From positions 9,686,001-9,750,000 of the forward strand of contig OY997588.1 of assembly GCA_963921825.1 (NCBI GenBank): a DNA stretch of 64,000 nt. The letters are read 5' to 3'. The notes beneath the pieces were generated by a model, which was not told the DNA's origin, did no database searches, and saw only the letters and a program-made list of their open reading frames with translations. Source of the DNA: Erodium maritimum. Its lineage: Eukaryota; Streptophyta; Magnoliopsida; Geraniales; Geraniaceae. The translations under genes and the position numbers were made by a program. Below, piece by piece: positions 13,708 to 63,902 of the stretch; position 1 is the first letter of the stretch; every line of letters starts with the position of its first letter.

Positions 13708-14695
13708 TTAAAATGAATGTATAGGCCTAACTTCGATACCTTGCACGACAATCCCTCCTTTTAACTGATATCCCTTGACCTCCATCAAAGTCATCTTCAC
13801 CTCATCCCCACTCCCACCATCATTATTGAAGAACTCTCCAAGCTTTATTTCAAGCCAACCATCTTGTCTCTGATAGGGACGATCAACCTTCTTGTCCCCA
13901 TACATTAGGCGCTGCTTCTCGCCGTCTTCACCGCACAAGTATGTTGTGCCCGCACACACACGATTCCCACCCACTTGTACGGACACCTCCGACGGTATCG
14001 CATCAAGGCCGTACGCTCGAGCGCACACTTGGAGGATGAGATAGGCTCCGTACACTGTCTCCTTCGACAGTGCTTCGGTTTTGATCTTCCCATGGATTTC
14101 TAGCCAGCTTGTTGTTCTTAGCTCTGCCACCTCTGCAAACCTATAAATAAACATTTTCATTAAACCTTAATTTAGATAAATCAGAATATGGTAATTAATT
14201 ATAAGTCATGGTGTTGGACTGACCTCGAGTTCGGTACAGGTTTCCAGCACCAATACATGGGATCGTTGCTCCATACAATCAAAAGCTCCCTTGCAGACAG
14301 CATGTATGATATTTTCCCCGAAGATTTGTCTAATTGGAAACTCTGATACATACACGTTCTCAAATCATGATAATCGATCAAATTCGTGCTCGAGGAGAGG
14401 GAAAGTTATGAAAACAACTTACCTTGGTGCCGGCATCGATAAGAGTTAGGTTGCAGAGACGAAAGTAGAGGTCTTTCTTTGAAGAAAAGGTCAGGGGGTG
14501 GACGGCTCGGCGGAGTATGTTGTGGTAGTCATGTGGCAAGAACCTCTCCCAGAGCAAATCCGACTCGGCCGCCGACCGCAGGTCCGACGAAACCAGACAA
14601 TATCTGGATGCATCCTGAGGAGTGGCGAGGGATAGAATGGAGCAAATACATTCCTCAGGCAACATAATTATAATAATCAATGAGTTATGTGTCAT
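13708..14695 (-). CDS. F-box protein of the PP2-B family
   Basis: Three exons on the minus strand: 14695-14423, 14342-14224 and 14140-13708. Splice sites and phase agree and give 274 residues. The N-terminus is an F-box (LPEECICSILSLATPQDASR, then FLPHDYHNIL). The remainder is a phloem-protein-2-like lectin domain, recognised from KSSGKISYMLSARELLIVW, YWCWKPVPNSRF, VAELRTTSWLEIHGKI and the ending GIVVQGIEVRP. PP2-B proteins act as substrate adaptors of SCF-type ubiquitin ligases, with the lectin part proposed to recognise glycans or target proteins. The start used is the first ATG after a TATA box. A second in-frame ATG ten codons later, directly before LPEEC, could also serve. Confidence 0.85.
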
Positions 14696-14765
14696 GGACC
14701 GATCGAGCTAGTTTTGTTGACTTCTTGTTCTTGTTGTATATCTTGATGCGACAACATTATCCTCT

Positions 14766-31000: not shown

Positions 31001-34000
31001 TTGGAGATGATCGAGGACAAGGTCGGGGACAGGGCTGCCAACATGATGGATCCACCCTATGCGCTTGAGGACAAGCGTCGTGTGCAAGGGGGGAGAGATG
31101 TTATGGGCCTTACGGACCGTAATGGAATGGGTTAAGCAAGCACACCACAAGGGTGTGGCCGGCCGGCTAGGGTGTAGTCGGCTAGGGTTTTGGGTTTGGG
31201 TAATTATTAGTTTATTTCCTTATAATTAATATCTTTGAGTTCAAGTAATATTAGGAATAGGTAAGTTAGATAATTATCAATTATAATTGTATTAGGGTCT
31301 TGATTTTAGGTAACCTCTTGGCTATATATACCAAGAGAGTATTATGAATAAAGCAGACTAAGAATTTAAAGAAATATTTTGGTCTCTCTACGAGGTCCTC
31401 GGGTTCCCTCTACAACGAGCATGTACTTGTTACGATTGGGAAGAAGAAGAAGAACAAGGATTAGCTCCAGCGAAGTCTTGGACTAAATCTGAAATCCTAC
31501 AACGGTCCCATAACGCGATCGATCACGCAAGGTCATAACACACACCTGTTCATGGCAAGTGACCCGCCAAGTTTCAAACATTGGCCTCTATTGAGGTGAG
31601 TGCCCAAGTAGGTTAACAGACATTGGTCTTGAAAAAATAGATACTCAAGAAAACAACAGAGAGAGAAGTTATGGAAGTCCAACTAAAATATAAGTTCCTG
31701 GTCAAACAAGCAAGAGATATTTAGTGCACGTCATTTAGACAAGCCACCCAATAAGCGTGCTTTGTAAAAGCACACAAACTCGAGCACAAGACATAATGGA
31801 GTTAGCAAATTTTCGATCTCTTAGTATAAGATCTTACTCTTACTTTTCCATTATGCTACCTTATTCCCTATTAACTTACTGACATCTTTGAATTACTCTA
31901 TTTATAAAGCAACTATAGAATCACAACTTCAAAAGTGATACAGGTACCTTGATATGCAAAAACTAAAATAAAGGGTAAACAAATAAATCATTCATATCTT
32001 ATGCCAATAAAGTTATTCATTAGTGCAGATGAGAGTATTACCTGGACAAGCAAGTAGGCTGGGAACCATAAATACGAAGGGCACCCCATAGCCAGTCGTT
32101 TCTCACGCAAGAGCGCAAATTGGTCCGCGTAACTCCTTCGTGAGAGAGGTGGTGGCAACAGAGGAGGCACTTTGAGATATAAACAAATTTAGTGTGTTAA
32201 ACAGCGGAGGTACATTAAAAATTGAATGGAAATCTTCATGGAAAACCATAAAAAAAATGTTTACTTCTATAATTAGAGAATCATCTATTTTCTGGTTCAT
32301 GATGTACTAGTACTAGACAAGGGTGCACCCATGATGCAAATCTTGTTAGGACAGTCATAAGGGAGGTGTGGCATGCAATTTGTTGGTAATGCATCAGTTC
32401 TGACATGCTTTTGGTACATGCAAGCTATTAAGCTGCTAAAGACGATAGATAATGTTACTCATAGTTTCTGAAACTGGAAATGCATTTCTAGAATATAACT
32501 TCTAGCCAGCCACAAAATTGATCCAACTCCCATACCAACTCTAGTGCAAGGAATACGTGGCTAATTGGCAGAATCATGATCACCTTAAGTGAAAGGAAGT
32601 TCAATAAAGAACTGAAACTTAGCAGCTGGTATAACAGTTCCTTATTAGATAATAAAAAGGAAAAGAAGTTCAATAAAGAACTGAAACTCAGCAGCTTGTA
32701 TAACATTTCTTTATTAGAGAATAAAAAGGCTCACAGTTAAGATATAATTGGTCCCCCAAATAACAAAATTAGAATTAAATACACACTTGACCTCTTACAT
32801 TCACATGATTACTCTTTCGTATTCTCCCCCTGAAGTTAAAATGCTGATTCTCTTGACTTGTAAATGGGCTCACTTCACATGTAATTTTGTGTTGCCCTTA
32901 TCAAGGAAATAATAGTAGCAAGGTATTTCAACCCTTATGCAACTTTGAATTAATTGATTTTGCTATCTTCCCTTCTTTGGAGGACTAACATGTCGCCTAT
33001 GGCTTGTTTATTGTCAGCATGGTAGTGTAAATTTGGCTGTAGGGCCCTCGCTTCACTTGATGCAATTCCATCTCTATAAAATATTCTTCATATTGGACTT
33101 CTCAATCAGTAAATACTGTATAAGGGTCTTAATTACTTTTCCCAAATCAATAGGGGTATATGAATACCCGATAATCCCAATTACCAGCAGAAGCTAAAAA
33201 ATATACCACCAAAAAGACACTTGTGAGGGAAAATCACAGTTAAATTAGCAAAACTAAGCTCCATATCATTTTAAACTATAACAATACAGCAGCAGCAATC
33301 TATACAAACAAATGTGATTCAAACTTAAATAGAAGGCCTACATGCTGCAAATGAAAGTCTACTTCTTTGGTTCACGCAAAGATTTGGTCAATAGATGAAG
33401 TTGTGGGACTCAAAATAGATTAAGAATGGATAATAGAATAGTATGATTTCAACATGGATGGGGATAAACAGATATTGTAAAGAGAACAGGTTTCAACATT
33501 ACCCTATGCACTCTCGAACTTGAATCTTACAAAAAGGGTCAGTGGGTAATTATGTATACAAAAACATGTCTTTTATGAGTGAGTCCCATTAACTTCCTTT
33601 GACAGGATTGACACCCACACCTATTTGCCAGTTGAAGTAATTAAAGATATTATAGAAATCCAGTGTAATGGAAATTGAGAGACTTACAATTAGGAAAACA
33701 CTCTCCTATCCTTTTCAACTTGTTGAGTTGCAAAATTAGTAAAGGAAACATTGTCAATCTCATTGCCACTGTAGAGGAAGCAATTATTATCCACCTGGAG
33801 ATCATAAAATAAAAGTTTCAGAACAATTCCCAGACTGCACTTCAGAGATCAATGTATGGTAACTTCCATTATGCTCTACTATGAAAATTGTAGCTCGGTC
33901 TAGCCAATGAGATAAAATGCGAGGAATTGAATTCGGATGCAGATGAATTCGGTCAAACATTATGTTTGGAACTTACCAAGGCAATCCGGTGAAGTCATGG

Positions 34001-36780: not shown

Positions 36781-37239
36781 AAACAGAATAAACTTTTGTA
36801 AGAAGAAGATGAATCTTAGATTTGTGGCAAGCTTCCCAATCTAATCTTTACTTTTTCCGACTTCATTCAATCTTTTTCCTGAATTATTGTCTCCTTGTAA
36901 GTACCTGATTCCTGCTGATGATGATTTCATAATTTTATTTATCGTCTTGTCCCCATTACTAGGATTTGTTGTTGCTATTTATTTTAATTTTACTGCTCCA
37001 TTTATTTCTTTCCTTGTTATTGTTATTGTTTTACTCTGATTATATATTATCTGGGTTGGTTCGATTTGGGTTTTAGCATGAACAGCTTGTTGTCTGGATT
37101 TGAGATTGGATTGTAAGTTTGGCTTTTTCTCTGACAGGTTACAAGTAGAGGGATTTGGTAATACATATATGTTTGTATATGTGTTTATGTTTACAGTGGT
37201 TTTGAATCTGCAATAGTTATATTCTATTGTGAAAGTGAA
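36780..37239 (+). promoter_or_regulatory. Probable split 5' UTR of the PHD gene
   Basis: A good donor (CTTGTAAGT, GT at 36897) and a good acceptor (TCTGACAG, exon from 37138) bracket a T-rich stretch of about 240 bp. This is the composition and size of a leader intron, ending about 100 bp before the PHD start codon. The transcription start is not determined. Confidence 0.45.
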
Positions 37240-40200
37240 ATGTTGTTGCAAAGTTTGATTGAAGCATCTGTATCTTTTTCCTCCAATCATGAAGAACAAG
37301 ATGTATTGCCTCCAAGAACCAGGAAAAGTTCGAGACGGGACAATGAGGCATCTCACAATGGTTCAGCTGGTAATGGGTCTGAAGTTTCTGGACCGTATCA
37401 GACTCGCAAAAGCAGGAGGCTCCAGCAAAGCTCTGTGGACAATGGTGCCGGCCGAGTGCTGTCTGTGGTCCTGGAAGAGAAATTGAATAGAGGTAGTGTT
37501 GGCGTGGATGCTTCTGTTTGTAATCCTCAGATTGGCGGTGGTGTTTCTTGTTTACAAGTTGAGTGCCCTACGAAACTGCAGAGAAGTTCGAGACACACCA
37601 TTGGTCTGGAGCCATTGGCATTTAGCATTAGGCATGAATCTTCTAGACCATACCCTATTCACAGCAGCAGGAGAATCAAGAAAAATTCTATTGTTATTTT
37701 ATCAGAGGAGCCAACAATTGATGAGGCAGAGAAGGATTGTTCAGAGGCTTTTGGTGGTCAAGTACATGAGCCAAAAATTGAGGTCTCCGTGTCTAGGGTT
37801 GAGAAGGATTGTTCAAAGACTCACAGAGGTTCTGGAACTGGTTATGGTGGCAAAGTACTTCCAGTTATCTCCGCAGAGAATTCAGATAGGGGCGATTATG
37901 ATATTGATGGTTCTGTTCGTAGGACCCTAAATGGAGATGATGTTCCTTATTTACAAGTTGAGTGCCCAAGCATTTGTGCTATTAATCGTGAGCAAGATTT
38001 TGATAGTTTTTCTTTGTTGCAATCAGAAAACAAAGTTGCTTCAGTCCATAAGAGTCGTAATGGTTTTGATGTGTTTAGTTTGGAGGAGTTGGATGGTGAT
38101 GCCTCGGTAAAACAACTCTGCATTTCCTTACTCAGAAGTTGGGGGCTGGTGGAAAGAAGTTGGCCTTTAGCTTTAAGTAGTGATAATATCTCAGAACTTT
38201 CAGGAACTAGTGGAAGAGGTGATATTCTGCCTTGTAAAATATGTGGTCAGTCAGAAAATACAATGAACATGTTACTCTGTGATCATTGTGACGAGGCATT
38301 TCATCTATCTTGCTCCAATTTAAAGAAGAAGTTGTTGCCAACTGACGAGTGGTTCTGTAGTCACTGTTTGGGAAAGAAATTTGAAGCGTCAACAGAAACT
38401 TACTTTTTAAGATCGCGTGGCAGCATTACTTGGGGAAATGCTGCAGCTAAATCAAAGTTTGGTCCAATAGATTTCATTTTGGGATATCCTGAAGCACATA
38501 AATCTAGTGTCAGAATTGGCAACAGATTTCAGGCAGAGGTTCCAGAGTGGTCAGTACAAAATTCAAAGTAAGTTATATTCTACTACATCTCGTTTGCACA
38601 GATAGTTTTTCTTTCCTGTATGATTCCTGAACGAACTAGCACCCACGAGAGTGGTAGACTTAGTACCAGGATAACTTTACTAATGACAACTTTAGAAAAC
38701 ATATACAAATAAAATGCAGTAATACCTTTGTATGCAGACCCTGGTGAAAATATGGTTTCACCATTAAGTGCAGTAATGCTAAATATTTTAAAATGAACAC
38801 TGTTTTTATGCATGGATATTCAAGATCTTTCACTGGGACTTTGAATGATTCGCTCAATATAGTGGCTAAAGTTGAATTTAACCATTAATAAATAGCATTC
38901 ATCAATAGTTTCAACTATTTTTTTTTTATTGTGGTACATGACTCTTATCACATTATGCCCATTTTTAGATCACATGTCTAGGTGTGTATATTCTTATTTA
39001 TTTTCTTTTCTTCCGTTTAATTTGCTTTTGAGATGTATAGACAACTAATTTTTTTGTCTTATAACACTAATTATTTGCTGATGTAGTGAATCTGATGGCT
39101 TTGGTGAACCATTGGAAATGAGCCCAGCTGATATACTTAGTTCACTTGTAAGAATCTCCTTAAACATTTTCTGCAATGTGTTGATAGGTTTTGGGTGTCT
39201 GTCATTCCTGATAAAAAAGGCCCCCTCCCTCCATGGCCTCAAGGTCACAATACAACATTTTTATTTCTATGCCATAACTCATTGCTAAAAAAGAACTGAA
39301 AATGAATTTCTCGATGGAGGCTGCATTTTTAATATAGCCACAAAAATTGAGGCCGACCTTATTTAAAATGACAGGGCAAAACTTATACTTGTACTGATTA
39401 TTGATAGTTTTCTTATTATGATGTTTTTGAGTTTTTTATGATGAAATATGTTTCCTCAGAACGGACGTCTTAAAAAGTTTTCCCAAGCTGGCTCCTATAG
39501 TAATTGGCTCCAATGTCGAGAAATTCTACATAAGGAGTTAAGAGGATGTGCAGAAAAAAGTATTTGTGGAAAGTGGCGCAGGTAAAGTGAATTATAATTT
39601 GAAGTGCCTCATGAATTTTAGGTTTAATAGATATTTACTATATGCACCATTCTCCACTTTCCTAAAAACCAGAAATTGCTCTGCATATTTTTTCTTTATG
39701 TTTTCATACAACGATTTCTTGGTGATATGAGTGGTTTGTTGACAACGTTGCTACTCGTTGTTCCTTGGGCATTTTATCTAACAGAACACCCTCAGCTTGA
39801 TTCAATAAGTAGTGCATATCCTTCACCACTCTACGTCCTGTTAGCAAATAACGTCTTGACTTGTCCCCTCAACCTAGTGGTCCTTGTTGCCATTTCTTTT
39901 CTTTGGACTTCTTGTAGTTGCTTGAATTTTCTAACTTCATCACTCGATTGCACCAATTGTTTTGTGAGCATTGCTCCCAAATAAGCCTCCATGGCAGTGT
40001 AAGGGTAGGTTTCAAGAGCTCCGATACTGATAATACCAGTAGATGGGAATGGACTTCCTTAAAGTTCGTGATGTAGGGCAACGCAAGGACCAGAAAATCT
40101 AACTAGCTGTAGAGAAAGAGTAGAAGGTTTAACATTAGGTTGATTCAATCATTCAAACTCTGCTCCAAAACATAACTCGGTAACTTATTTATAAGTGAAA

Positions 40201-41333: not shown

Positions 41334-42903
41334 CTCTGCTCCGGTCGTATCGATCGTCTTCACTGCATATCCACCCAATCTCCCCTTCAAGTAGATAACG
41401 TGAAAGATGAGCTTGGTTCCACTCCAACGGATTCTCTCCTTCCCCAACATTTGTCATGAGCTTCTATCCTTATACGAAGAATATTGTAAAATCGTTACAG
41501 TATCACACGGAAAGAGGACTAAAAAGGTTTTGAGACTCAGTTAAGAATGGTCGTATTCCGGTCAAGCCGGTGGGGCATAGACCTGGTAGGTCTCCTACTG
41601 TCACGGCTCCGATGAGGGACAACAAGGTGGTCGGAGGAGGCACTGGTTCGGCTGAGTTGAGGCCGACAAAGGTGAGCAGCGGCGATTCGCGGAGAGCAGA
41701 ACTCCGGCGCTCAGCAACAAGACCGGGGTCGATATCAGATGAGATATTCATCTGCAATTTGCCGGCTCAAACCAAAGCTTTGTGGATTCAAAACGTCTTC
41801 GGAGTGTTTGGTAACGTGCTTTCAGTCTCTGTTCCGTCCGGCCGAATCGAAAAGGCAAGTACTTTGGATTTGCAAAGTTTGGTTCGCCGGAAGCGGCAAG
41901 TCAAGCCATTGCCAGCCTCAATGGCCTGAAAATCAATGGCAATACCTTACTCGTTGCAGAGGCTCGTCGCCGGAAAGGACGGAGCGGGACGCGGCATAGT
42001 GGTGACACTTCTCGTCCCGGGTCGGCCGGTTTGGAAAAACATAGTTCGCCGGGATCTTGTTCTCAAACAAAATCGATGGCGGCACCAAAACAGGCTTCGC
42101 CGGAGCACGAGTTTAGTGGATGCAGGTCGACGGCAACTCGGTCCGACAGTCAAGGGATTTCGAATCCCATATCTCCTGAAATTCCTGGATTGGGTGCGCT
42201 GAATTTTGCAGATATTGTTTCTCAGTCAATTTCTGATTCGCAACCCAAATTAAATGGAAAGTCGACTGAATTTCAGTCTGAAATTTCGGGAAATGCTTTG
42301 GTAATATCCTCAACGCAGAACAAGATTAGAGATTTGGCCCATTAACAGTTGGAATCAAATGAGAAAGCCCATGTTGGGGTACCGGAGCAGGTGGCCCAAA
42401 AATCGATTTCGGACTCTTTGGGTAAAGACACTCCACCTACAGGTTTGAGCATTAAATTCTCCGTTCCTGTCACGACAGAGGATGCGGAGGAGGTGGTGGT
42501 TAGCTATCACCAAGCTGTTCTTGCATTATCGCCTGCGATAGCTAAATCAGTCAAAAGGAACAAAAAGAAAAAAACAATCTCAGACTTGCACCTATTCCAC
42601 ACAAACCCGACCGAAAACTCAGAGCGAACAAGAAATTTTAACAGCACAGAGTAGAAATGAGATTTGGAGGCACCTCGTCAATACAGGGAAGATATTGACA
42701 GATTGAATTGTCTCTTCTTCTTTTTTCACAGAGGTGTCTGTTTTAAGTTGTTTCGATTTGAGAGCGGTTTGTATTGTTTGCTTTTCGACAGAACTACGGT
42801 TTTAGTTGCGGGATGATCCGCTTTCGCGTGGTGTTCCCCATCTTTGTAATTTTACTCAAATTTCAAAGATTAATAAATTCATTGCTTATCAAAAGAAAAG
42901 ACA
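41334..42903 (+). mobile_element. ORF1-only LINE derivative with target duplication
   Basis: A copy of about 1.57 kb with a 5' leader, a single RRM-type ORF1, a T-rich 3' UTR and a 3' end reading TTAATAAATTCATTGCTTAT and then AAAAGAAAAGAC. The 9-bp sequence AGTATTACA occurs at 41325-41333 and again at 42903-42911, consistent with a LINE target duplication. Endonuclease and reverse transcriptase are absent between ORF1 and the tail. The copy is therefore a half-LINE (HAL1-like) that relied on another LINE. Confidence 0.75.
41547..42653 (+). pseudogene. LINE ORF1 protein with RRM domain, frameshifted
   Basis: The first frame contains an RRM RNP2-like motif (DEIFICNLPAQTKALWIQ). A frameshift near 41855 moves to a frame with an RNP1-like motif (GKYFGFAKFGSPEAASQAIA) and ARRRKGRSG. 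A stop at 42343 then interrupts SSTQNKIRDLAH before a further segment ending at 42653. RRM-type ORF1 is typical of plant L1 elements and binds RNA during retrotransposition. Confidence 0.8.
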
Positions 42904-46249: not shown

Positions 46250-48110
46250 ACGAAATTTAAGTCTTTTTAACGAGACTTGTCTTCTCTGGTGAGTACATCT
46301 CATCCTTGTCTACAACATAGCTTGTGTCATGTACAGAAACCCAAATCTGGTATTCGCCGATGAAAATCAAAAGCTTCGCTCCTCCAAGAGTTCCCCTGCC
46401 ACGGCATACGGTATATGCCCTCCATACAAAATAAGAAGAGATATGGAGAGATGGGATCACCTTGCCGAATTTCGCTCCCTGCCGTAAATGAAGTTGTATT
46501 CTTACCTCCTGAGCTGATTGTGTATATGTTAGGACTAAACATCGCCAATAAGGCCCAAAACCAAAATCCTCCATCATAGAGAGGATAAAAGACCACTCTA
46601 CCCGGGCATAGGCCTTACTCATGTCTAATTTCAGCGCCATGAATCCATTTGGGCCTTGGGTACGCCTGCGCAACGCATGAATGACCTTATAGGAGATAAA
46701 AAAAAATCATTCTGAATTGCCCAAATTAGGACAAAAGCTCCCTGGTTAGTAGATGTGATCGGATCCAAGAAAGGTTTTAAGCGGTTGACCAGTACCTTGG
46801 ATAGAATCCTGGAGATGACGTTACAAAGGGAAATAAGTCGTAGGTCCGTAATTTTCCTAGCTGTTTGGGTTTTCTGGATCATAACCAGAGTAGTCTTGTT
46901 GATGTCACTGCCGATCCGTGCTGTAGAAATTGTCAACCGAACAAAGTCAATAACTTTTGCACGCAGGATATACTAGTAATGTTGAAAGAATAGAGGGTTA
47001 AGACCATTCGGTCTTTGTGATTTGGATGGACCCATATGAAAGACCACATGATGGACTTACTCGCCAGTGACCGGACATGTAAGAGTAGCATTATAGGTCG
47101 TGGATATTAGTTCTGGGATCGGTAACGAGAGGACATCTGGCATGTCCGATCCCGGGATGAACATCCGACGAAAATAGTTCATGAAAAAGGTCTTGCATAC
47201 TTGTCTCCCAAGACACCTCCTCCCCGTTGTCATTTTCCAGGACTCGAATCTTGTTCCCCCATTGCCTTTTCGTGGCCACCCTTTGGAAGAACTTAGTATT
47301 CCAGTCACCCCCAACAAGCCATTCCTGTTTTGCTCGCTGTCGCCAAAACGACTCCTGCTTTTCCAGAGCCCGGTTGTATAATTTTTGGATAGTCAATCGT
47401 TGTCGGATAATCTGACGGTCGGTTTTACCATTAAGATCTCGGAGCTGCCTCTAGAGTTTTCTTATCTGGTTAATATTCTCTCGGAATACTATTTGTCCCC
47501 TATTATGGAGGGAGAAGCCGATTTATGCAATATGATACTTGATATGTCGGTTCCCCGGGCGACCCCATTCATTTTGTATTAATTGGCCACATTCAGGGTG
47601 GTCAATCCAATTATTCTCGAACCGAAATTGTCGTGGTCCAGGTCTAATGTCATCCACTTGAAGCTTAAGAAGAATGGACATATAATCGAAAGTGGAATAC
47701 CTCATATTATGGAGGGAGGCTTGGCGAAATCGACCCTGTGCACGAGGGGGCATAAATGCCCTATCCAGTCTAACCTCCATTCGATGTTACGGATCGTGAC
47801 TTTTAGTGTAGGTGAATTGATATCTAGTCAGTGGAACTTCTTCTACTCCTATATCCGAGATCGCATGCTAAAAGCCTTGAAATATTGCCATCGGGTATGG
47901 AAACCCACCTTTTTTCGAGGGGTGGAGAATACCGTTGAAGTCCCCCATCAGAATCTAGTCCAGAGCTGCCTGAATTTGAGCCAACTGACAGAAAAGGTTC
48001 TACGTACGATGACGATGCTCTCTAATGAGTTTTCCATATATGTCTGGAAAACGGAACAGTCGGTCTTGTTCCACCCAAACTTGAGCATTATTAATATACC
48101 ATAAAAGCGA
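46250..48110 (-). pseudogene. LINE (L1-type) endonuclease and reverse transcriptase relic
   Basis: Minus-strand frames in order: a decayed endonuclease C-terminal part from 48110, with LDRAFMPPRAQGRF and PRQFRFENNWIDHPECGQLI (47780-47523); a linker with KQESFWRQRAKQEWLVGGDW and KFFQRVATKR (47396-47091); and RT segments with SLCNVISRILSKVLVNRLKP (46936-46631) and GFMALKLDMSKAYARVEWSF (46673-46257). Stops and frameshifts separate the pieces. The RT catalytic YADD region and the 3' end are missing, so the copy is truncated on both sides. Confidence 0.88.
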
Positions 48111-50910: not shown

Positions 50911-51020
50911 TAACTGAGAAAGATTGAAAACATCTGACGACACTTACATAACTTCAAACCCAGCAGTACCAATTATAGGAGGTTAAGCAAGCTGTTGTTT
51001 CCAGGTTTAATTCCCTGAAA

Positions 51021-52076
51021 ATGTCTCAAACAGAAATCAAGGAGAGTGATGTAGACATTGTGATTGGGGCACTTCATTCTGACCTTATGAATTTCTTGAA
51101 TGCATGGAGACCATTTATCTCTCGGTTCCATCTGATAATTGTCAAAGACCCTGCTCTTACTGCTGAACTCCAGATACCCGAAGGCTTTGACATCACTATA
51201 TATACTGCTGATGATATAGAACAATTTGTAGGCAGCTCTCGTTCTGAGATGTTCTCTGGCTATGCATGTCGCTACTTTGGTTACCTTATCTCTCGCAAAA
51301 AATACATCATATCACTTGATAACGATTGCATTCCTGCAAAGGACACTAAGGGGTATTTAGTGGATGCTGTGGCTCAGCATATTACCAACCTCACAACTCC
51401 CGCCACCCCATTTTTCTTCAATACACTCTATGATCCATACCGTGATGGAGCAGACTTTGTTCGGGGTTACCCGTTTAGTCTTCGGAACGGGGTTCCATGT
51501 GCCTTGTCATGTGGACTATGGCTGAATTTAGCTGACTTGGATGCACCAACTCAAGCATTGAAGCCTGAGATGAGAAACACTCGATATGTTGATGCTGTTC
51601 TGACTGTTCCATCAAGGACCATGATGCCGGTCAGTGGAATTAACATTGCTTTCAATAGAGAGATTGTGGGGCCTGCATTGTTCCCTGCTTTGAGGTTAGC
51701 CGGGGAAGGTAAGGTGAGGTGGGAAACAATGGAAGACATATGGTGTGGAATGTGCATTAAGGTCGTGTGCGATTACATGGGTCTTGGTGTGAAGACGGGT
51801 CTGCCTTATGTGTATAGAAAGGAAGGAGGCGATGCCATAGCAAGCTTGAAGAAAGAGTGGGAAGGGATGAAGCTGATGGAAGAAGTGGTTCCTTTCTTTC
51901 AGACACTAAGGTTGGCTCCAGGTGCAAAAACTGCAGAGGAATGTGTGTCTGGGATGGCAAAAGCAGTCAAGGCCCAGCTGGGAGGGTCAAATCATATGTT
52001 TGGCCGTGCTGCTGAGGCAATGGAGGAGTGGGTCAACCTCTGGCGTAAGGCTGCATCCGGTCAACCTCTGGCGTAA
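51021..52076 (+). CDS. RGP5: Reversibly glycosylated polypeptide, RGP5 type (UDP-arabinopyranose mutase family)
   Basis: One uninterrupted coding exon, 351 residues, homologous over its whole length to plant RGP/UAM proteins: DVDIVIGALHSDLMNFL, the metal/nucleotide-binding region YIISLDNDCIPAKD, the glycosylated-arginine region YDPYRDGADFVRGYPFSLR, DAPTQALKPEMRNTRYVDAV and GEGKVRWETMEDIWCGMC. The family interconverts UDP-arabinopyranose and UDP-arabinofuranose at the cytosolic face of the Golgi. Class-2 members such as Arabidopsis RGP5 are reported to lack mutase activity themselves and to associate with other RGPs. The DXD motif reads DND where I recall DDD in relatives, with both outer aspartates kept. 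A 28-bp tandem duplication at 52032-52087 alters the last residues. A splice acceptor (TTTCCAG) 16 bp before the ATG suggests an upstream leader intron. Confidence 0.92.
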   Translation: MSQTEIKESDVDIVIGALHSDLMNFLNAWRPFISRFHLIIVKDPALTAELQIPEGFDITIYTADDIEQFVGSSRSEMFSGYACRYFGYLISRKKYIISLDNDCIPAKDTKGYLVDAVAQHITNLTTPATPFFFNTLYDPYRDGADFVRGYPFSLRNGVPCALSCGLWLNLADLDAPTQALKPEMRNTRYVDAVLTVPSRTMMPVSGINIAFNREIVGPALFPALRLAGEGKVRWETMEDIWCGMCIKVVCDYMGLGVKTGLPYVYRKEGGDAIASLKKEWEGMKLMEEVVPFFQTLRLAPGAKTAEECVSGMAKAVKAQLGGSNHMFGRAAEAMEEWVNLWRKAASGQPLA

Positions 52077-57069: not shown

Positions 57070-57393
57070 TTATAACATGAATGATAGCTTGAGACAAGTT
57101 GCTCCGCCAATCTGGTCGGAGAAGACATCAATGACGGCTCCACTCTCCATGTCGAGGTCGAGGGGTGTTTCTTTGCCGTTGATCCTCCGACCATCATAGA
57201 TGAACCTCAGGTGATCGAAGGCAACACCTTTCCTCATGCAGTAATCAAGGAATAGGCCGTGGAAGGGGGTCTTCAGACCGAACCTGTACCTAAGAGGATC
57301 TTTATCTTTCTGCCTCTGCAACACAATGCTCATCAGCTTCTCGTCTTTGTCGATGGAAAATGAGAGAACGATCTCACCCTGTCCCCCTCCCAT
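57070..57393 (-). CDS. SUMO-like protein with diglycine end
   Basis: An intronless frame of 107 residues with the SUMO beta-grasp layout. The LMSIVLQRQ and PLRYRFGLKT strands are followed by the helix LFLDYCMRKGVAFDHLRF, then IYDGRRINGKETPLDLDME and SGAVIDVFSDQIGG. Plant SUMO-1/2 have matching blocks (FRIK, LMNAYCDRQ, FLFDGRRL, TPDELDME, then QTGG, from memory). QIGG at residues 94-97 is followed by a 10-residue tail. That matches a SUMO precursor that a ULP-type protease would trim to expose diglycine for conjugation through SAE1/2 and SCE1. The sequence is very divergent from canonical SUMO, and no N-terminal acceptor-lysine consensus is evident. The start is the only ATG before the fold. 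Confidence 0.8.
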   Translation of the reverse strand: MGGGQGEIVLSFSIDKDEKLMSIVLQRQKDKDPLRYRFGLKTPFHGLFLDYCMRKGVAFDHLRFIYDGRRINGKETPLDLDMESGAVIDVFSDQIGGATCLKLSFML

Positions 57394-57435
57394 CTCTTTC
57401 TCTTCTCTTTTACCTTTGGATTAAGATTAAGATGG

Positions 57436-57446
57436 TTTGGTATTTA
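57436..57446 (-). promoter_or_regulatory. TATA-like box of the first SUMO-like gene
   Basis: On the minus strand the sequence TCTTTAAATACC lies about 50 bp upstream of the start codon. It is a plausible TATA element for a short leader. Confidence 0.35.
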
Positions 57447-57479
57447 AAGACGAGGATTAATTAATATTAATTTATGTAT

Positions 57480-58150
57480 CGTCAATAATTACTGAGCATT
57501 ACATTAGTGAATGTACTTGCAAACCACTCCTTTGGGCTGTCCCTTCCGTTCCCCTATGCGGAATATCAATGGTTTTTAATAATTTCAATTAAATGTAATG
57601 GTGCTCCGATTCTTGGAATCATCAACTCAGTTTAATCAGTCACTAGTTAGATTGTGTCACGCAACGGTCCACATACTTCTTGTGTCAGTGGCTCTACATT
57701 CGATTAATTAAATTTCATGTTGTTTTGATGACGCCATATCAGCACCGATGCAGGTTTTGTGGAAAGCGGAAGATGTCATGAACGAGAAAGAAACTCTTTG
57801 ATGCTGAAACAAAATGTTTACACGAATCTACAAAAATATATGAAAGGCAAGATGATATGAAAGTTTCAAAACAGTGAGCCAGGGAAAGAACTTTTTTTTT
57901 ATCTGCAAAAATAACCAACTATATTATGGTGTTGTATTTGTATGTATGGATGTGAAGATCCAAAAAGTTTGATTAATTTCGACCAAGCATTTCCTGTTCT
58001 GTCGTCGACAACTGTTAAGATAACCACATAAAACATGAGGATTAAAAATTCAAAAACCTACACCATACATACTCAAGCTAAAACTCAGAGCAATCAGGAA
58101 ATTCTAGCAGTTCAGCACAACGCAGAAAAGAGATTATGAAATAGTTTGTC
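57480..58150. other. Intergenic, nothing recognised
   Basis: The sequence upstream of the first SUMO-like gene up to the LINE-like fragment. It has no protein-like frame and no inverted repeat that I can define. Confidence 0.4.
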
Positions 58151-58640
58151 ACTACAAGAAAGTTGTAGGGATTTATTGAAGTTTGATCTCTTTTTCTGTT
58201 AGAAGTTCAAGTTGTTTTGTTTATGGGTCAAGTTTGAATGGTTTCTTTCTGGTGGAAGGGCGTTTAAGTCTCGGGTTTTGTGGTAGTCGGAAGTGCTTGG
58301 TGTTGTTGTGGTGTATTGTTTTTTGTGCTTCACGATTGGGAGATCTAGGTATTACACCTGTTTGTTTAGTGTTTTGAGATTCATCGTTAAATTGAGTATT
58401 TTAGACTTTTTATAGTTTCAGTTTAGCCCCTTGTCGGGCTTAGTTTCCTTGGTCGTGATTGCCTTGTTTGTTGCTTAATGGTTGTGATATCCGATACTGA
58501 GACATTTTCTCTGGTTTTCTCTCCTTGTTGGGAGTGATTTGTATGTGCTCTGGTTTGTATGAGGGGATTCTTTCCTCTTTCTCTTGACTTTATTTCAAAG
58601 TCTTGAGATTTTAATATATGCTAGCTTCCCAAAAAGTAAT
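58150..58640 (+). repeat. LINE-like 3' end fragment
   Basis: A T- and G-rich plus-strand sequence (TTGTTTTGTTTATGGG, TTTTTTGTGCTTC) ends GATTTTAATATATGCTAGCT and then CCCAAAAAGTAATAAC. It shares the TTTTAATATATGCT ending of the copy that ends near 10.3 kb. It stops directly at the Harbinger relic. Confidence 0.45.
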
Positions 58641-60135
58641 AACATGGATGCTAGCGTACGAGTGCTCGACGGAATATTTGACAAAACACTACAGATTAGT
58701 TAAGTACCATCAATGTTCTAAAAATCTTGACTGGACGCCGCCTAGGCGCCCGCCTACGCCTAGCCGACTAGGCGATTACAACAATTTTGCGTAGTATACT
58801 GACTCAATTAAAAATAATTAGATGGTTATGGTGTTGGTGATATTAGGTGTTGTGCTTCTGAGGTGTTTGGTGTGATTTTTTAGGTATTTTAGATATTATG
58901 TACCATTTTAATATAATGAAATTCATATTTTATTTCTATATATAATAATATATCTATTAAAAATAAAAAAATACAAATCCGATTAATCCCCGTCTAGTCC
59001 CCGATTAATCCTCGAAGGACCTAGCCGCCCGACTAGCGCCTAGCGACTTTTAGAACCTTGAGTACCATAGTCAAATGTGTGCGACAGTTTTGCATAACAT
59101 GTTGAAGTATTTATCGAGAAGTACGAGCGAGCACTCAATGTGGAGGACTTGACCCGATTGTTGGAATAGGGATACAACGAGGGTTCCCAGACATGATCGG
59201 GAGTCTTAACTGTATGTATTGGAAGTGTAAGAATTGCCCAACCATGTTGTAAGGAGCCTTTGGACGATGAAATCACCATGGGCGTCCATCAATAATGTTG
59301 AAAGTTGTAGCATCCCTTGACTTGTGGATTTGACGTGCGTATTACGAGTCTGCTAGCTCGAACAAAGACATCAAACGTGCTCAACAAAGGACACTTATTT
59401 GATGATGTTCTTACCGAACATGACTATATCATGGACTACGAGATAAACTAGACTCAATACGATTGACCTTATTATTTGTTTAAATGCATTTATCCAAATT
59501 GGAGTCAGTTTGTGAAGACGATTCGCCATCATGTCCAACCCAAATACAGATTGTTAGTTAAAGTCCAAGAAAGTGTTCGAAAGGATGTTGAATGAGATTT
59601 TGGAGTCTTTCAAACACGGTGGCATATAATTAATTGAGGAAACGGAAATAAAATACAAATGGGATGATCTCAATCAAATGGATTTCACACACAAATGTTT
59701 GGAAGATTGTCGAAGGTAACCCAAAGTGGAAGGCCAGGTTTTTTCCAACCCCCAACCCTACATCCAACCCGATGTTGAAGTAGATGTTGAAAGCGAAGTA
59801 AGGAAATGAGCAAGGTTGGACGAAGACTGTTCCTATGACACAAACATGCCTTTGGACTCTAAGCCAAACACGGCAAACACCTATACTGATCCGGAAATAA
59901 TCTCCACATGTGAAGTGTGTCCTGAAGGTCAGAAGAGGGTGATGACTAGGCCGAGGAGCAAAGGAAAGACCATAATATTGTTGGTCTACAAAATGTTGCA
60001 AGAAGCATTCTTGTACAAACTGTTAAAAAGCGAAAGTTTTTCAAGATCAAGGTTGATCGCATGTGAGCGATGTACAAGACGACTTAGGAAAAGGACACCT
60101 CCGATATGTCGGAAGGCGGTAGAGCAGTTCATGTA
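58641..60135 (+). pseudogene. PIF/Harbinger relic: transposase plus partner ORF, split by a MITE
   Basis: The frame before the MITE reads MLAYECSTEYLTKHYRLVKY. After the MITE it resumes with STIVKCVRQF, GFPDMIGSLNCMYWKCKNCP and IMLKVVASLDLWI, matching the DDE transposase of plant Harbinger elements. A decayed C-terminal part follows (YPNWSQFVKTI). From about 59690 the sequence matches the second, Myb/NAM-like Harbinger ORF: VWKIVEGNPKWKARFFPTPN, then CPEGQKRVMTRPRSKGK. Stops and shifts abound, so neither protein is functional. TIRs were not identified. Confidence 0.8.
58711..59060. mobile_element. hAT-type MITE inside the Harbinger relic
   Basis: A 350-bp element with inverted ends CAATGTTCTAAAAATC and, inward from the right, CAAGGTTCTAAAAGTCGC. 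The subterminal blocks are CGCCTAGGCGCC on the left and TAGCCGCCCGACTAGCGCC on the right. The 8-bp sequence AGTACCAT is directly repeated on both sides (58703-58710 and 59061-59068), the target size of hAT elements. It was inserted into the Harbinger transposase frame, so it is the younger of the two. Confidence 0.88.
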
Positions 60136-60525
60136 GCTACAATCGCCACCCTTGGTCGGATACTTTGGGACCTCTAGTCTTCAAGTTATAGGTTTAAATT
60201 TTAATTCCATGATTTATTTTAATGTTTATCATACCCGCTATTAGATTTAATAAATGTTTATTTTAAAAAAAAAATTGTTCCGAATAACAATTATCTATAA
60301 CTTCAACATCTCTCCCCTTAACTACTACGCCATTTACTTTTACCCTAACAATGTTGGCCGTAGTCATTCACATATTAAAAATAATTGCATGGTGGCCAAC
60401 GAATCAAAAGACAGAAAGGCATGCAACCACTTTAATTAAGGGTGACGATTCGCGTGCTACATAATTAATTGAATTTAGTTTTGAACAACCACAGAAACCG
60501 AAGAGACGGACTCATTAATCACATT
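60136..60525. other. Intergenic, promoter side of the second SUMO-like gene
   Basis: AT-rich sequence with no gene. Regulatory sequence for the 60612 gene should lie here. Confidence 0.4.
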
Positions 60526-60527
60526 TG

Positions 60528-60541
60528 ACTATATATAGATA
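60528..60541 (+). promoter_or_regulatory. TATA box of the second SUMO-like gene
   Basis: ACTATATATAGATA lies about 75 bp upstream of the ATG at 60612. It is followed by an A-rich, ATG-free leader, which supports the chosen start. Confidence 0.55.
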
Positions 60542-60611
60542 GAGGTAGATAACAAAACTTACAAAGCCATCAATTGAACTCCAAAAGCGCAACAATTATT
60601 TTCAATTAGGA

Positions 60612-60983
60612 ATGGAAGGATCGTCTCCAATACTGCGAGAGCTTCTTAACTCGGTGACTCGGCTAGACCTTGACGTCCACATGACAGTGGAGCCAGGTCG
60701 GTCCCGGTCCAAGTCCGACAACGTCGTGTCCCTTCTGGGCGATGAAGGTGGTGACGTTGCCATCACTGTCAAGGTCATGAAGCGAAAAGGCGAGTTTGTC
60801 GGATACAAATTAGGAAAAACGACACCGTTGCGCTTGCTGATGGTGGATTACTGCGAGCGCAAAGGGGTTGCGTACGGTGAGGTTCAGTTCGGGTTCGATG
60901 GTCGATTGGTTCGCGAGAGACAGACCGCTGGGTCTTTGGGTTTGGTTGATGGTGATGTCATTCATGCTTGGCTCGAATCTTAG
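60612..60983 (+). CDS. SUMO-like protein lacking diglycine, with N-terminal extension
   Basis: An intronless frame of 123 residues. An N-terminal extension of about 45 residues (ELLNSVTRLDLDVHMTVEPG) precedes a SUMO-like fold: VAITVKVMKRKGEFVGYKLG, then LRLLMVDYCERKGVAYGEVQ, FGFDGRLVRERQTAGSLGLV and DGDVIHAWLES at the end. The order of strands and the helix matches SUMO, but the protein stops right after the last strand with no Gly-Gly. It could not be processed or conjugated like SUMO. A role as a non-covalent ubiquitin-fold protein is inferred from that absence. A TATA box and leader suggest it can be transcribed. Confidence 0.75.
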   Translation: MEGSSPILRELLNSVTRLDLDVHMTVEPGRSRSKSDNVVSLLGDEGGDVAITVKVMKRKGEFVGYKLGKTTPLRLLMVDYCERKGVAYGEVQFGFDGRLVRERQTAGSLGLVDGDVIHAWLES

Positions 60984-60989
60984 ATTGTG

Positions 60990-61480
60990 CTTTGCTATTC
61001 GCTATCTTTCAGAGTTGCTTTACCTCTTGTTTTTTTTTGTTGTTCTGAATTGAAATGGAAGCGCTTATGTTTTGAATTGGATCAAATTTACATCTACAAT
61101 TGCAAAACAAATGCACCACTATATATATTGCTGTTGTTAGGGTATAAAATAAGCAATTGCCTATAATTTTTTTTAATTTAAGAACTCCGAATAATTTATA
61201 CGATATGTAGCCATATTTCGAAATAAAATATGAGTTATAAATGGACAATCATTTCACTTGATCATACATATATTAACCCTTCGAAACTACATTTTAAGTT
61301 GATATGTTCGTAACATGGCCATGATTTCTGAATTTTCTTAACTAACTTGGCCACCTCACCTAATCGTAGTAGCAGTGTGCATCTAAGTTTTTCGATTAAC
61401 CAACTATAATATATGACTGATAAATGAAAATCATCTTCAAAAAAAATTGTGTTGTCAAAAGTAATTGATAAGCGTCATTA
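60990..61480. other. 3' flank of the second SUMO-like gene
   Basis: AT-rich non-coding sequence. No supportable element. Confidence 0.4.
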
Positions 61481-61923
61481 CAAAAGGAAGACAATCATCA
61501 TTTTTATGTCCTGAGTCGTGCGGATGATGGCAAACTTTATCACGGTATCTGGTTCTTAGTTCGGATTTTGTCAAATTTTGTCCGGATTCATCGTATCCGT
61601 TCATTTTTATGGCCTGGTCGTTGCAGCGGCGTCGTTGCAAGGCCTGCAACGCCTCCTATAACCATTCCTTGTAGTAGTAGTCGTTGCAGCGCGTCACCGA
61701 CAATTCTATCAATGATAGGACTCGGCGGCGTAGGCCCAACAACTAGACGCGGGTACAATGACGTGACGTATGGTGCTGATTTTTAAAAATCCCATAAATT
61801 TTCCTGTAAATACACTATCCCTATAGAAAATTCACACATCTTCTCTTCTATACCTTTTCTTCTCTCAATCTTCATTATTATTTTTTTAATGATTGTTATC
61901 CAACAATAGTAGAATTGGCTAAA
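61481..61923 (+). repeat. Probable 5' non-coding part of a Harbinger element
   Basis: A GC-richer block with repeated GTCGTTGCAGCG phrases (GGTCGTTGCAGCGGCGTCG, AGTAGTCGTTGCAGCGCGTC), then an AT-rich leader of CTTCTCTTCTAT type, runs into the transposase frame at 61924. The same arrangement (GC-rich block, short leader, transposase) is seen in the intact element at 14849. The terminal inverted repeat was not found. Confidence 0.4.
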
Positions 61924-63200
61924 ATGACTCCCCAAGACATGACGAAAGTGAGGAAAAGGATTGAACAACTAATAGCCAAGCGCATTGATGATCGGATTTC
62001 GGCAAGGGTATGACAAAGTGCAGAAGATGAGGAGGTCAAGGGGTCAGAATCGTCGACTGCACTAAAGCGGAGAATGACAGAGCCAAATTGAGACGAAGCA
62101 CACGAGCGGTTGATAGCTAACTACTTCGCTCCTACTCCGGTGTACAACGACCAAAAATTTCGATGTCGCTTCCGGATATCGAAGGAGTTGTTCCTACAAA
62201 TCATAACTGCATTGAGTGAGCGGTACACATTCTTTCGTTAATGATCCTATTCTACAGGAAAACTCATATTCTCTCCGCACCAGAAGTGCACGACAACACT
62301 TCGTCAGCTCTGTTATGGAGGTCCTGTTGATACCGTTGGTGAGTACTTGCGAATGGCGAATAACACTACTTTGAAGTGCGTCCGAAAATTCTACTTGGAC
62401 GTCATCAAGATTTTTGGACAAACATATCTACGACTACCGACGGAGGAAGATGTTCGTCGTTTGCTGGAAATCAACGAAGCCCACGACTTCCCGAGGATGA
62501 TAGGGAGTCTCGAATGCATGTACTGGGATTGGAAGAACTGTCTGGTGGCATGGGCTGCACAATTCTCAAGTAGAGACCACGAGAGCGTCCCCCAATCATG
62601 CTACAAGTTGTGGATATGACTCTTTTTTCGAAACATCGAGCTCCAACAACAACATTAACATGCTGAATTGGTCAACATTGTTCACCAGACAGTTCGAGGC
62701 TTTGCTCCACCGGTTAAGTTTAAGATCAACAACAGAGAATACGCAACCCCTCATTACTTGACAGATGGAATTGATCCTCCTTGGACTACATTTGTGAAAA
62801 CAATATCAGCTCCACAAACGGCAAGGTAAAGGTGTTTTGCTAGAAACCAAGAGTTGACGAGGAAGGATATCGAACGAGCATTTGGAGTTCTGCAAGTTCG
62901 CTTTCATATCGTCATTCGTTTTAACCGAATGTGGGATTGGAACTCGCTCGCAGTCATCATGACTACTTGTATTTTTCTACACAACATGATCGTCGAGGAT
63001 CAACGGAAGCCGTACCCCCACTTAATCGTTTGCAGATATTGGTGTCCTGCCTATACTGCACCGCACAAGACCGCCACCAACAGTGAACATCACATGTATC
63101 CTGAGATATAGAACAAGGATCCATGATCGAGAAGTTTATCACCGACTCTATAATGACCTCGTTGATCATATTTGGACAAGATATGAAATGATCGATCAAA
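61924..63200 (+). pseudogene. PIF/Harbinger transposase pseudogene
   Basis: Segments in order across shifting frames: RLIANYFAPTPVYNDQKFRC; RMANNTTLKCVRKFYLDVIK and GQTYLRLPTEEDVRRLL; the DDE region start FPRMIGSLECMYWDWKNC; DGIDPPWTTFVKTIS; and the terminal helix block TRKDIERAFGVLQVRFHIVI with CIFLHNMIVEDQR. Early stops (TGA near 62010) and frameshifts inactivate it. Coverage is nearly full length, so it is an old but complete transposase rather than the deleted type at 15.2 kb. Confidence 0.85.
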
Positions 63201-63209
63201 ATTAGAGTA

Positions 63210-63610
63210 ATATAATGTATTTTTATACTTGATAAGAATAAAATTAACTGTTTATTTTAGTGTTATTTTGAAAATATTAAAAAGTAAATAAACATTTAAA
63301 CTGTAACTCTTATAATTAATTAGTGATAGAAAGTAGTTATCTAGAGAAATTAAAAAAGTACTTTTACCACCCTTCTCTCCAACTGGCTGACAGAGTAATG
63401 AATCAATAGACAGAGAAAGACATGCAATATTAATTACTTAGCGTGAGACGATTCGTGTTCCGTGTATTCAATAGAATTGAATACATTGGGAACAAGCAAA
63501 AGCGAAACGAATCAGTAATCACTTTGGTCGGAGCTTCCAATACTCGTTAATTAAGATATGACCACACGACCTTGACTAACTATTTAACAACCTCGTATCG
63601 TATATTGGGT
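63210..63610 (+). promoter_or_regulatory. Upstream region of the third SUMO-like gene
   Basis: About 400 bases of AT-rich DNA between the Harbinger relic and the start codon. A weak TATA-like CTATTTAACAA lies near 63581, about 40 bp before the ATG. No other element is seen. Confidence 0.35.
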
Positions 63611-63623
63611 TAGTGGGAAAGGA

Positions 63624-63902
63624 ATGGCAGGGGTGGAGGACATGCTACTATGGATGCCAATTCCGAAAGACGAAACCATGATATCGATCAATGTTCAGAG
63701 ACCAAAGGACGAGACAGTGTGCTACAGGGTTTGTCGGAAAACTCCTCTTAAGGATCTTATGAATGACTATTGCCTGCGCAAGGAGCTTGCCTTCCAACGT
63801 GTGAAGTTTATGTTCGATGGAAACTGGATTGACGGATCGCTCTCTCCTCATGACTTGGATATGGACGATCAAGATGTCATCGACGCTTGCTTTGTTAGTT
63901 GA
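63624..63902 (+). CDS. SUMO-like protein lacking diglycine, short form
   Basis: An intronless frame of 92 residues consisting almost only of the SUMO fold: MISINVQRPKDETVCYRVCR, then LKDLMNDYCLRKELAFQRVK, FMFDGNWIDGSLSPHDLDMD and DQDVIDACFVS at the end. LMNDYC and DLDMDDQDVIDA align closely with LMNAYC and ELDMEDGDEIDA of canonical plant SUMO (from memory). It ends at the last strand without Gly-Gly, so conjugation by the SUMO pathway should be impossible. Clean coding over the whole fold argues for selection or a recent origin. An alternative is a pseudogene truncated before the C-terminus. Confidence 0.75.
   Translation: MAGVEDMLLWMPIPKDETMISINVQRPKDETVCYRVCRKTPLKDLMNDYCLRKELAFQRVKFMFDGNWIDGSLSPHDLDMDDQDVIDACFVS

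What the first reader, a model, noticed from the sequence alone, without database searches (positions are those of the whole stretch)
57070..63902. Cluster of three divergent, intronless SUMO-like genes
Three frames with the SUMO beta-grasp pattern lie within 7 kb, one on the minus strand and two on the plus strand. They differ strongly from each other and from the canonical SUMO sequences I recall. All lack introns, whereas canonical plant SUMO genes have them (family knowledge). Only the first keeps a diglycine. Harbinger relics lie between them. This looks like a local expansion of ubiquitin-fold proteins, two of which can act only non-covalently, for example as decoys or regulators of SUMO-binding proteins.
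Basis: partly seen in the sequence, partly recalled or inferred. Interest (0 to 1): 0.75.

Follow-up and report, generated by a model that had tools for sequence, protein, structure and literature searches.

The report
Cluster of three divergent SUMO-like genes
A plant chromosome carries three neighbouring, intron-free relatives of the protein tag SUMO; one could still be attached to other proteins, while two have lost the attachment end yet look preserved by selection, so they probably act by touching partners instead of tagging them.

Summary
P1 (57070-57393, minus), P2 (60612-60983, plus) and P3 (63624-63902, plus) match the SUMO-type domain PF11976 above its cut-off (44, 40, 59 bits); P3 is modelled as a SUMO fold. 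The same plant genome has six ordinary, intron-split SUMO genes and one likely RENi/SUMO-v gene; P1-P3 are the only divergent intronless SUMO-type genes among 75 scored domain matches. P1 keeps Gly-Gly in register; P2 and P3 stop just before Thr-Gly-Gly. Identity among them is 29-42%, silent sites are near saturation, frames are intact and pairwise dN/dS is well below 1. New here: P2 and P3 share an upstream block of about 130 bases (97 of 119 aligned bases identical, 22 gap columns), found at only these two places by an exact pattern. Most likely this is a lineage-specific SUMO-like hotspot of the published SUL-gammaC/GSUL2 kind, with P1 a potential modifier and P2/P3 non-conjugatable partners of the SUMO E2. 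Expression, synteny and binding are untested.

The parts
57070..57393 (-). P1: SUMO-like gene, single exon, 107 aa, diGly retained, followed by ten residues
   Evidence: PF11976 44.2 bits; alignments
57103..57108 (-). P1 Gly96-Gly97 codons, in register with the canonical SUMO diGly
   Evidence: codons read
60612..60983 (+). P2: SUMO-like gene, single exon, 123 aa with about 50 residues before the domain; stops just before the canonical Thr-Gly-Gly
   Evidence: PF11976 40.1 bits; model mean pLDDT 74; alignment
63624..63902 (+). P3: SUMO-like gene, single exon, 92 aa; stops at the same alignment column as P2
   Evidence: PF11976 58.8 bits; model mean pLDDT 84 with SUMO chains as best Foldseek matches
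60398..60527 (+). Upstream block of P2, shared with P3; ends 85 bases before the ATG
   Evidence: local score 88 against a maximum of 58 in 500 shuffles; 97 identical, 22 mismatched, 22 gap columns
63397..63526 (+). Upstream block of P3, shared with P2; ends 98 bases before the ATG
   Evidence: shared pattern hits only these two places in the genome
57358..57372 (-). P1 N-terminal hydrophobic stretch (residues 8-12, IVLSF), SIM-like by eye
   Evidence: read from alignment A1; inference only
60723..60737 (+). P2 N-terminal hydrophobic stretch (residues 38-42, VVSLL, then GDE), SIM-like by eye; short strand at 38-40 in the model
   Evidence: low pLDDT there
63642..63653 (+). P3 N-terminal hydrophobic stretch (residues 7-10, MLLW), SIM-like by eye; short strand at 6-8 in the model
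   Evidence: low pLDDT there
59061..59330 (+). Degenerate Harbinger-type transposase relic between P1 and P2
   Evidence: 34% identity over 92 columns to the relic at 62347, E 1e-9
62347..62619 (+). Harbinger-type transposase relic, N-terminal part (PF04827 positions 2-55)
   Evidence: 64.8 bits
62854..63111 (+). Harbinger-type transposase relic, C-terminal part (PF04827 positions 153-203)
   Evidence: 69.6 bits

Best explanation
This is a local cluster of three old, intronless SUMO-like (SUL) genes in a plant. Shown: SUMO-type domains, both canonical introns absent, frames intact, coding sequences constrained while diverging, P1 with diGly in register, P2 and P3 without it, and P2 and P3 sharing a conserved upstream block. 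Inferred: an ancestral SUL copy without introns (retroposed or intron-lost) was duplicated; P1 stayed conjugatable in principle (a ULP protease would remove its ten-residue tail), while P2 and P3 became free SUMO-fold proteins that cannot enter the E1 step. Inferred mechanism: P2 and P3 bind non-covalently, first of all to the back side of the SUMO E2 (SCE1/Ubc9) through the retained Asp-Gly loop, and so tune chain formation or E3-dependent discharge, as non-conjugatable SUMO does in vitro and as the SUMO-like domains of Rad60, Esc2 and NIP45 may do. P2 and P3 may share regulation through the upstream block.
For: Family: PF11976, SUMO chains in the PDB by sequence, Foldseek of the P3 model to SUMO2/AtSUMO2 at rmsd about 0.9. 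Constraint over 69 core codons: differences at codon positions 1/2/3 are 26/18/48 (P1-P3), 28/29/41 (P1-P2) and 29/28/41 (P2-P3); omega 0.046, 0.235 and 0.087; 2dlnL against omega=1 is 41.9, 12.9 and 21.3. Neutral drift to 40% difference leaves ATG and frame intact in 48 of 4000 simulations, to 60% in 7 of 4000. Shared upstream block. E2 back side: the residue equal to Smt3 D68 is Asp in all three (P1 D67, P2 D96, P3 D65; invariant); P1 34-99 matches Smt3 35-100, stretches of equal length that I take as gapless. Smt3 D68 contacts Ubc9, D68R breaks it, and added non-conjugatable SUMO stimulates E2 discharge in vitro (PMC8636563, passages). SUMO-like domains of Esc2, Rad60 and NIP45 bind Ubc9 (PMC9243176, PMC2946365, passages).
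Against: No expression evidence. Low pairwise omega covers the whole time since the splits and cannot exclude recent loss of function; distances are saturated, so the values are rough. P1 and P2 have lost most of SUMO's negative charge (computed pI 6.7 and 6.1 against 4.95 for the canonical protein; P3 4.5), which speaks against unchanged E2 contacts. In the yeast work the stimulating effect of free SUMO also needed an E3 SIM, so a groove that still binds SIMs may be required. No relative was found in other plants, though that search needs shared 5-residue words and would miss proteins this divergent.
Confidence: 0.5

Rival explanations
1. P2 and P3 are SUMO decoys that occupy SUMO-interacting motifs of readers, rather than E2 modulators.
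For: The strand that lines the SIM groove keeps an aromatic, a basic and a hydrophobic residue in all three (canonical F-R-I; here Y-R-F, Y-K-L, Y-R-V). No diGly in P2 and P3.
Against: Other residues beside the groove differ from canonical SUMO. Which residues form the groove is recalled from SUMO structures and comes from no call.
Confidence: 0.2
2. The cluster is a set of retroposed or decaying copies on the way to pseudogenes, and diGly loss in P2 and P3 is the first sign of decay.
For: Both introns are absent; degenerate transposons lie between the genes; the tandem copies AtSUMO4/6 and AtSUMO7/8 are called pseudogenes in PMC6680281.
Against: Frames survive at near-saturated silent divergence, omega is well below 1 for each SUL pair, and the P2/P3 upstream block is better conserved than their third codon positions.
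Confidence: 0.15
3. The N-terminal hydrophobic stretch folds back on the SIM groove, so these are self-covered SUMO folds that contact only the E2, comparable to the covered groove of Rad60 SLD2.
For: Hydrophobic stretch at about the same place in all three; a short extra strand there in both models; the SIM cleft of Rad60 SLD2 is obscured by side chains (PMC2946365 passage).
Against: Mean pLDDT in the blocks holding the strand is 48 (P3) and 55 (P2); no coordinates were available, so the strand's partner is unknown; no control model of canonical SUMO was run.
Confidence: 0.1

Closest known systems
SUL-gammaC locus of eudicots (taken there as the source of Arabidopsis SUMO5), Hammoudi et al. 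2016, PMC6680281
   Same: Divergent SUMO-like genes at a hotspot that differs between plant families; certain members keep diGly
   Different: Synteny with this window not tested; exon structure of SUL-gammaC genes was not given in the parts read
GSUL2/DSUL cluster of grasses (PMC6680281)
   Same: Array of SUMO-like genes, some without diGly
   Different: The grass cluster also has head-to-tail multi-domain genes; here each gene has one domain
Soybean non-canonical GmSUMO4/5/6 (PMC5573446)
   Same: About 30% similarity to canonical SUMO; two have consecutive locus names on chromosome 8
   Different: All have three exons and keep diGly; here no introns, and two of three lack diGly
Plant SUMO-v / RENi (At1g68185 type; PMC549199, PMC5573446, PMC11371177, passages)
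   Same: SUMO-type domain without C-terminal diGly, thought to act non-covalently
   Different: Soybean SUMO-v has more than 200 residues before the domain; P1-P3 have 19-50. A likely member of this family sits on C7 (L050)
SLD2 of Rad60, Esc2 and NIP45
   Same: Non-conjugatable SUMO fold that binds Ubc9
   Different: Part of a larger protein; here free-standing

Membership tests
SUMO-type (Rad60-SLD) domain proteins | PF11976 domain above the curated cut-off | tested here: met
   44.2, 40.1, 58.8 bits against 23.8
SUMO-type (Rad60-SLD) domain proteins | SUMO beta-grasp fold | tested here: met
   P3 model pLDDT 84 matching SUMO chains; P2 model pLDDT 74 with a similar order of elements, not searched; P1 not modelled
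Conjugatable SUMO modifier | C-terminal diGly in register, P1 | tested here: met
Conjugatable SUMO modifier | C-terminal diGly in register, P2 and P3 | tested here: not met
   both stop at the column before Thr-Gly-Gly
Conjugatable SUMO modifier | Processing by ULP and transfer by SAE/SCE1 | not testable with these tools
   needs biochemistry
Canonical (archetype) plant SUMO | Near-invariant beta-grasp sequence and N-terminal acceptor motif | tested here: not met
   32-35% identity to a canonical SUMO of this genome; acceptor motif absent in P1-P3
Canonical (archetype) plant SUMO | Split (three-exon) gene as in this genome's own copies | tested here: not met
   P1-P3 are single frames; the six canonical genes are split
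SUL-gammaC lineage | Collinearity with the AtSUMO5 / eucalyptus SUL region | not tested
   no plant genomes for comparison at hand
SUMO-v / RENi | Long N-terminal extension before a C-terminal SUMO-like domain | tested here: not met
   19-50 residues before the domain in P1-P3
DSUL/GSUL2 concatemer | Two or more SUMO-like domains in one frame | tested here: not met
   one domain stretch per protein

The most novel reading that the evidence does not exclude
P2 and P3 are a dedicated pair of free-standing, non-conjugatable SUMO cofactors, co-regulated by a conserved upstream element, whose N-terminal strand covers the SIM groove so that they act only at the back side of the SUMO E2; P1 is their conjugatable sister, so one locus would supply both a tag and the regulators of its own chain building.
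Probability: 0.1. Interest if true: 0.65.

Novelty: new member of a known kind. Interest (0 to 1): 0.38.

Why it matters
[quoted passage not shown] A cluster with one conjugatable and two non-conjugatable members, intact frames and a shared conserved upstream block is a clean set for testing whether free SUMO-fold proteins regulate the SUMO E2 or SIM readers in plants.

Tried and rejected
Ubiquitin rather than SUMO: rejected; PF00240 scores lower than PF11976 for all three. Relation to the C7 66.64-66.92 Mb cluster: rejected; the 12 divergent C7 frames read there are ubiquitin-type. Upstream block as a transposon copy: not supported; each block finds only itself, though this search also missed the partner block, and a pattern shared by both finds 2 places and 0 of the reversed control. 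P1 sharing the block: not supported (score 38 with P2, reached by 52 of 500 shuffles; score 28 with P3, reached by 447 of 500; nhmmer E 0.91). The three tested downstream flank pairs show no similarity above shuffles. Tree: P1-P3 fall outside the canonical group, but their order is unresolved and long branches are flagged, so it is not used. The equal stop column of P2 and P3 as proof of common descent: not relied on, because the likely RENi gene on C7 stops one residue earlier, so this may be a natural end of the fold. Protein database: P3 alone had 1 candidate, none passing; the alignment of P1-P3 had 211 candidates, none passing; as a control a canonical SUMO of this genome gave 857 proteins (120 listed), so plants are in the database. 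Literature: 'non-canonical SUMO' with 'plant' and 'intronless' gave 0 papers; of the 16 papers with three of sumo/retrogene/intronless/sumo4, none of the 8 listed titles concerns plant SUMO genes. PMC6759571 was opened for a residue claim and gave nothing usable. Transposon ends: no convincing terminal repeats.
Full report
What is there. The window lies at C1:9686001-9750000 of an unnamed 763 Mb genome in 40 contigs; that it is a plant is inferred from its SUMO genes, whose named best matches are plant proteins. Near the window's end are three single-exon frames: P1 at 57070-57393 on the minus strand, P2 at 60612-60983 and P3 at 63624-63902 on the plus strand. Each matches the SUMO-type domain PF11976 above the curated cut-off (44.2, 40.1, 58.8 bits against 23.8) and scores lower against ubiquitin. 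By sequence each finds solved SUMO structures. A model of P3 (22-row alignment) has mean pLDDT 84, and its best Foldseek matches are SUMO2, Smt3, SUMO1 and AtSUMO2 chains, many at rmsd near 0.9. A model of P2 (21 rows) has mean pLDDT 74 and a similar order of elements in its last 75 residues; it was not searched. P1 was not modelled.

How they relate to the genome's other SUMO genes. The PF11976 search returned 75 matches from 128 candidates, all scored; the tool warns that such counts are lower bounds. I sort them as follows. 42 score 61.6 bits or more, 37 of them in units 228 bases apart, the 76-codon spacing of polyubiquitin; these 42 were judged by score and spacing and not translated. Six are canonical SUMO exon-2 matches. 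Three are P1-P3. One on C7 near 10.349 Mb (L050) looks like the last exon of a RENi/SUMO-v gene, ending in a SUMO-type sequence without diGly; that name is from family knowledge. The remaining 23 were read and are ubiquitin-type or other ubiquitin-like frames. So P1-P3 are the only divergent intronless SUMO-type genes seen. In the canonical genes exon 2 (DGNEVFF to TPDE) and exon 3 (LEMEDGDEIDAMLHQTGG) lie apart in six of six, and the exon-1 motif HINLKV was found in three of six fetched stretches, about 0.9-1.4 kb before exon 2; for two of these three the surrounding frame was not printed. P1-P3 run through both junctions. tblastn found no fourth copy at E<1 in the window, 50 kb downstream or 20 kb upstream. 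A genome search with the P1 protein did not complete; those with P3 and P2 each give nine matches, the three SULs and the six canonical genes.

The C-terminal ends. In the alignment with 19 database proteins, P1 reads VIDVFSDQIGG and then ten more residues, with Gly96-Gly97 on the canonical diGly. P2 and P3 both end at the column of the canonical Gln, directly before Thr-Gly-Gly. P1 can in principle be processed and conjugated; P2 and P3 cannot. The shared end may be inherited, but the likely RENi gene stops one residue earlier, so it may also be a natural end of the fold.

Are they alive? Identity among the three is 29-42%, and to one canonical SUMO 32-35%. Over 69 core codons, differences at codon positions 1, 2 and 3 are 26/18/48 for P1-P3, 28/29/41 for P1-P2 and 29/28/41 for P2-P3. 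A pairwise codon model gives omega 0.046, 0.235 and 0.087 and rejects omega = 1 with 2dlnL of 41.9, 12.9 and 21.3. Against the canonical gene omega is about 0.02, but the distance ran to its bound, so that figure is only a direction. The alignment was made on proteins, which leans slightly towards low omega. In a neutral simulation without insertions or deletions, start codon and frame stayed intact in 364, 116, 48, 15 and 7 of 4000 runs at 20, 30, 40, 50 and 60% difference. Three intact frames are therefore hard to explain without selection for most of their history. This does not show that they work today.

A shared upstream block. The 500 bases before P2 and before P3 align with score 88, against a maximum of 58 in 500 dinucleotide shuffles; P1's upstream does not join. 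The block is 60398-60527 and 63397-63526, ending 85 and 98 bases before the ATG. It has 97 identical and 22 mismatched aligned bases and 22 gap columns: 82% of aligned bases, or 69% if gap columns count as differences. As the best local stretch it is a favourable choice, and the 85-98 bases next to the ATG are not part of it. Third codon positions of P2 and P3 agree in 28 of 69 core codons (41%). Since silent sites should not normally diverge faster than free DNA, the block was probably either kept by selection or copied between the genes by conversion. Each block finds only itself in the genome, which also shows that this search misses the partner; a spaced exact pattern shared by both occurs at just these two places, with 0 hits of the reversed control. 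A transposon origin is therefore not supported, though distant copies could be missed.

How it most likely works. Yeast Smt3 D68 touches Ubc9 at its back side, D68R breaks this, and extra non-conjugatable SUMO stimulates discharge of the loaded E2; in that system the effect also needs a SIM of the E3 Nse2 (PMC8636563, passages). P1 residues 34-99 match Smt3 35-100 (equal lengths, taken as gapless), which puts P1 Asp67 on D68; the aligned residue is Asp65 in P3 and Asp96 in P2 and is invariant in the three. SUMO-like domains of Rad60, Esc2 and NIP45 bind Ubc9 without a conjugatable end (PMC2946365, PMC9243176, passages). I therefore take E2 back-side binding as the likeliest role of P2 and P3, with binding to SIM readers as the main rival. 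Against this, P1 and P2 have lost much of SUMO's negative charge (computed pI 6.7 and 6.1, canonical 4.95, P3 4.5). All three proteins also carry a hydrophobic stretch before the domain, where canonical SUMO has its charged acceptor motif; both models place a short, low-confidence strand there. It could be a SIM or a cover for the groove; this is a guess, made without coordinates or a control model.

What is known. Hammoudi et al. 2016 (PMC6680281; abstract, the three parts of the Results section and passages read) describe a third SUMO lineage of eudicots, SUL-gammaC, as a hotspot of divergent SUMO-like genes, and a grass locus, GSUL2/DSUL, with a varying number of copies, some without diGly. 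Soybean GmSUMO4-6 are about 30% similar to canonical SUMO, have three exons and keep diGly (PMC5573446; one part of one section and passages). SUMO-v lacks diGly but has a long N-terminal extension (PMC5573446 and PMC11371177, passages); RENi proteins also lack the diGly (PMC549199, passages). So the kind is known. What I did not meet in the parts read is the combination here: three intronless members, two diGly-less copies side by side, and the conserved upstream block. Whether this is a SUL-gammaC locus was not tested, since no plant genomes were at hand for comparison.

Limits.

Noticed in passing
G000 C7:66.64-66.92 Mb (L001-L008, L030-L037, L057, L058): A separate cluster of about 270 kb with four polyubiquitin-like arrays and twelve divergent ubiquitin-type frames; two of them (C7:66846197, C7:66916985) have drifted far from ubiquitin.
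   Followed up: partly
G000 C7:10349254-10349409 (L050): Likely last exon of a RENi/SUMO-v gene, ending in IIEVHVK without diGly.
   Followed up: partly
L012-L017: Six canonical SUMO genes; three share an identical exon-2 protein sequence. No second copy of the P1-P3 cluster was seen.
   Followed up: no
window 60420-60426 and 63421-63427: Both upstream blocks contain CATGCAA, which resembles the RY element of seed-expressed genes (recalled, not tested).
   Followed up: no
window 50979-52073 (+): Uninterrupted 365-aa reversibly glycosylated polypeptide frame (PF03214, 588 bits), 5 kb from P1; other neighbours: SUZ domain 6766-7380, F-box/PP2 13711-14707 (minus), PHD finger 37162-38568, RRM 41815-42342.
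   Followed up: partly
window 30176-31007 and 46260-47450: Frames that look like retrotransposon gag and LINE reverse transcriptase relics (by eye only).
   Followed up: no
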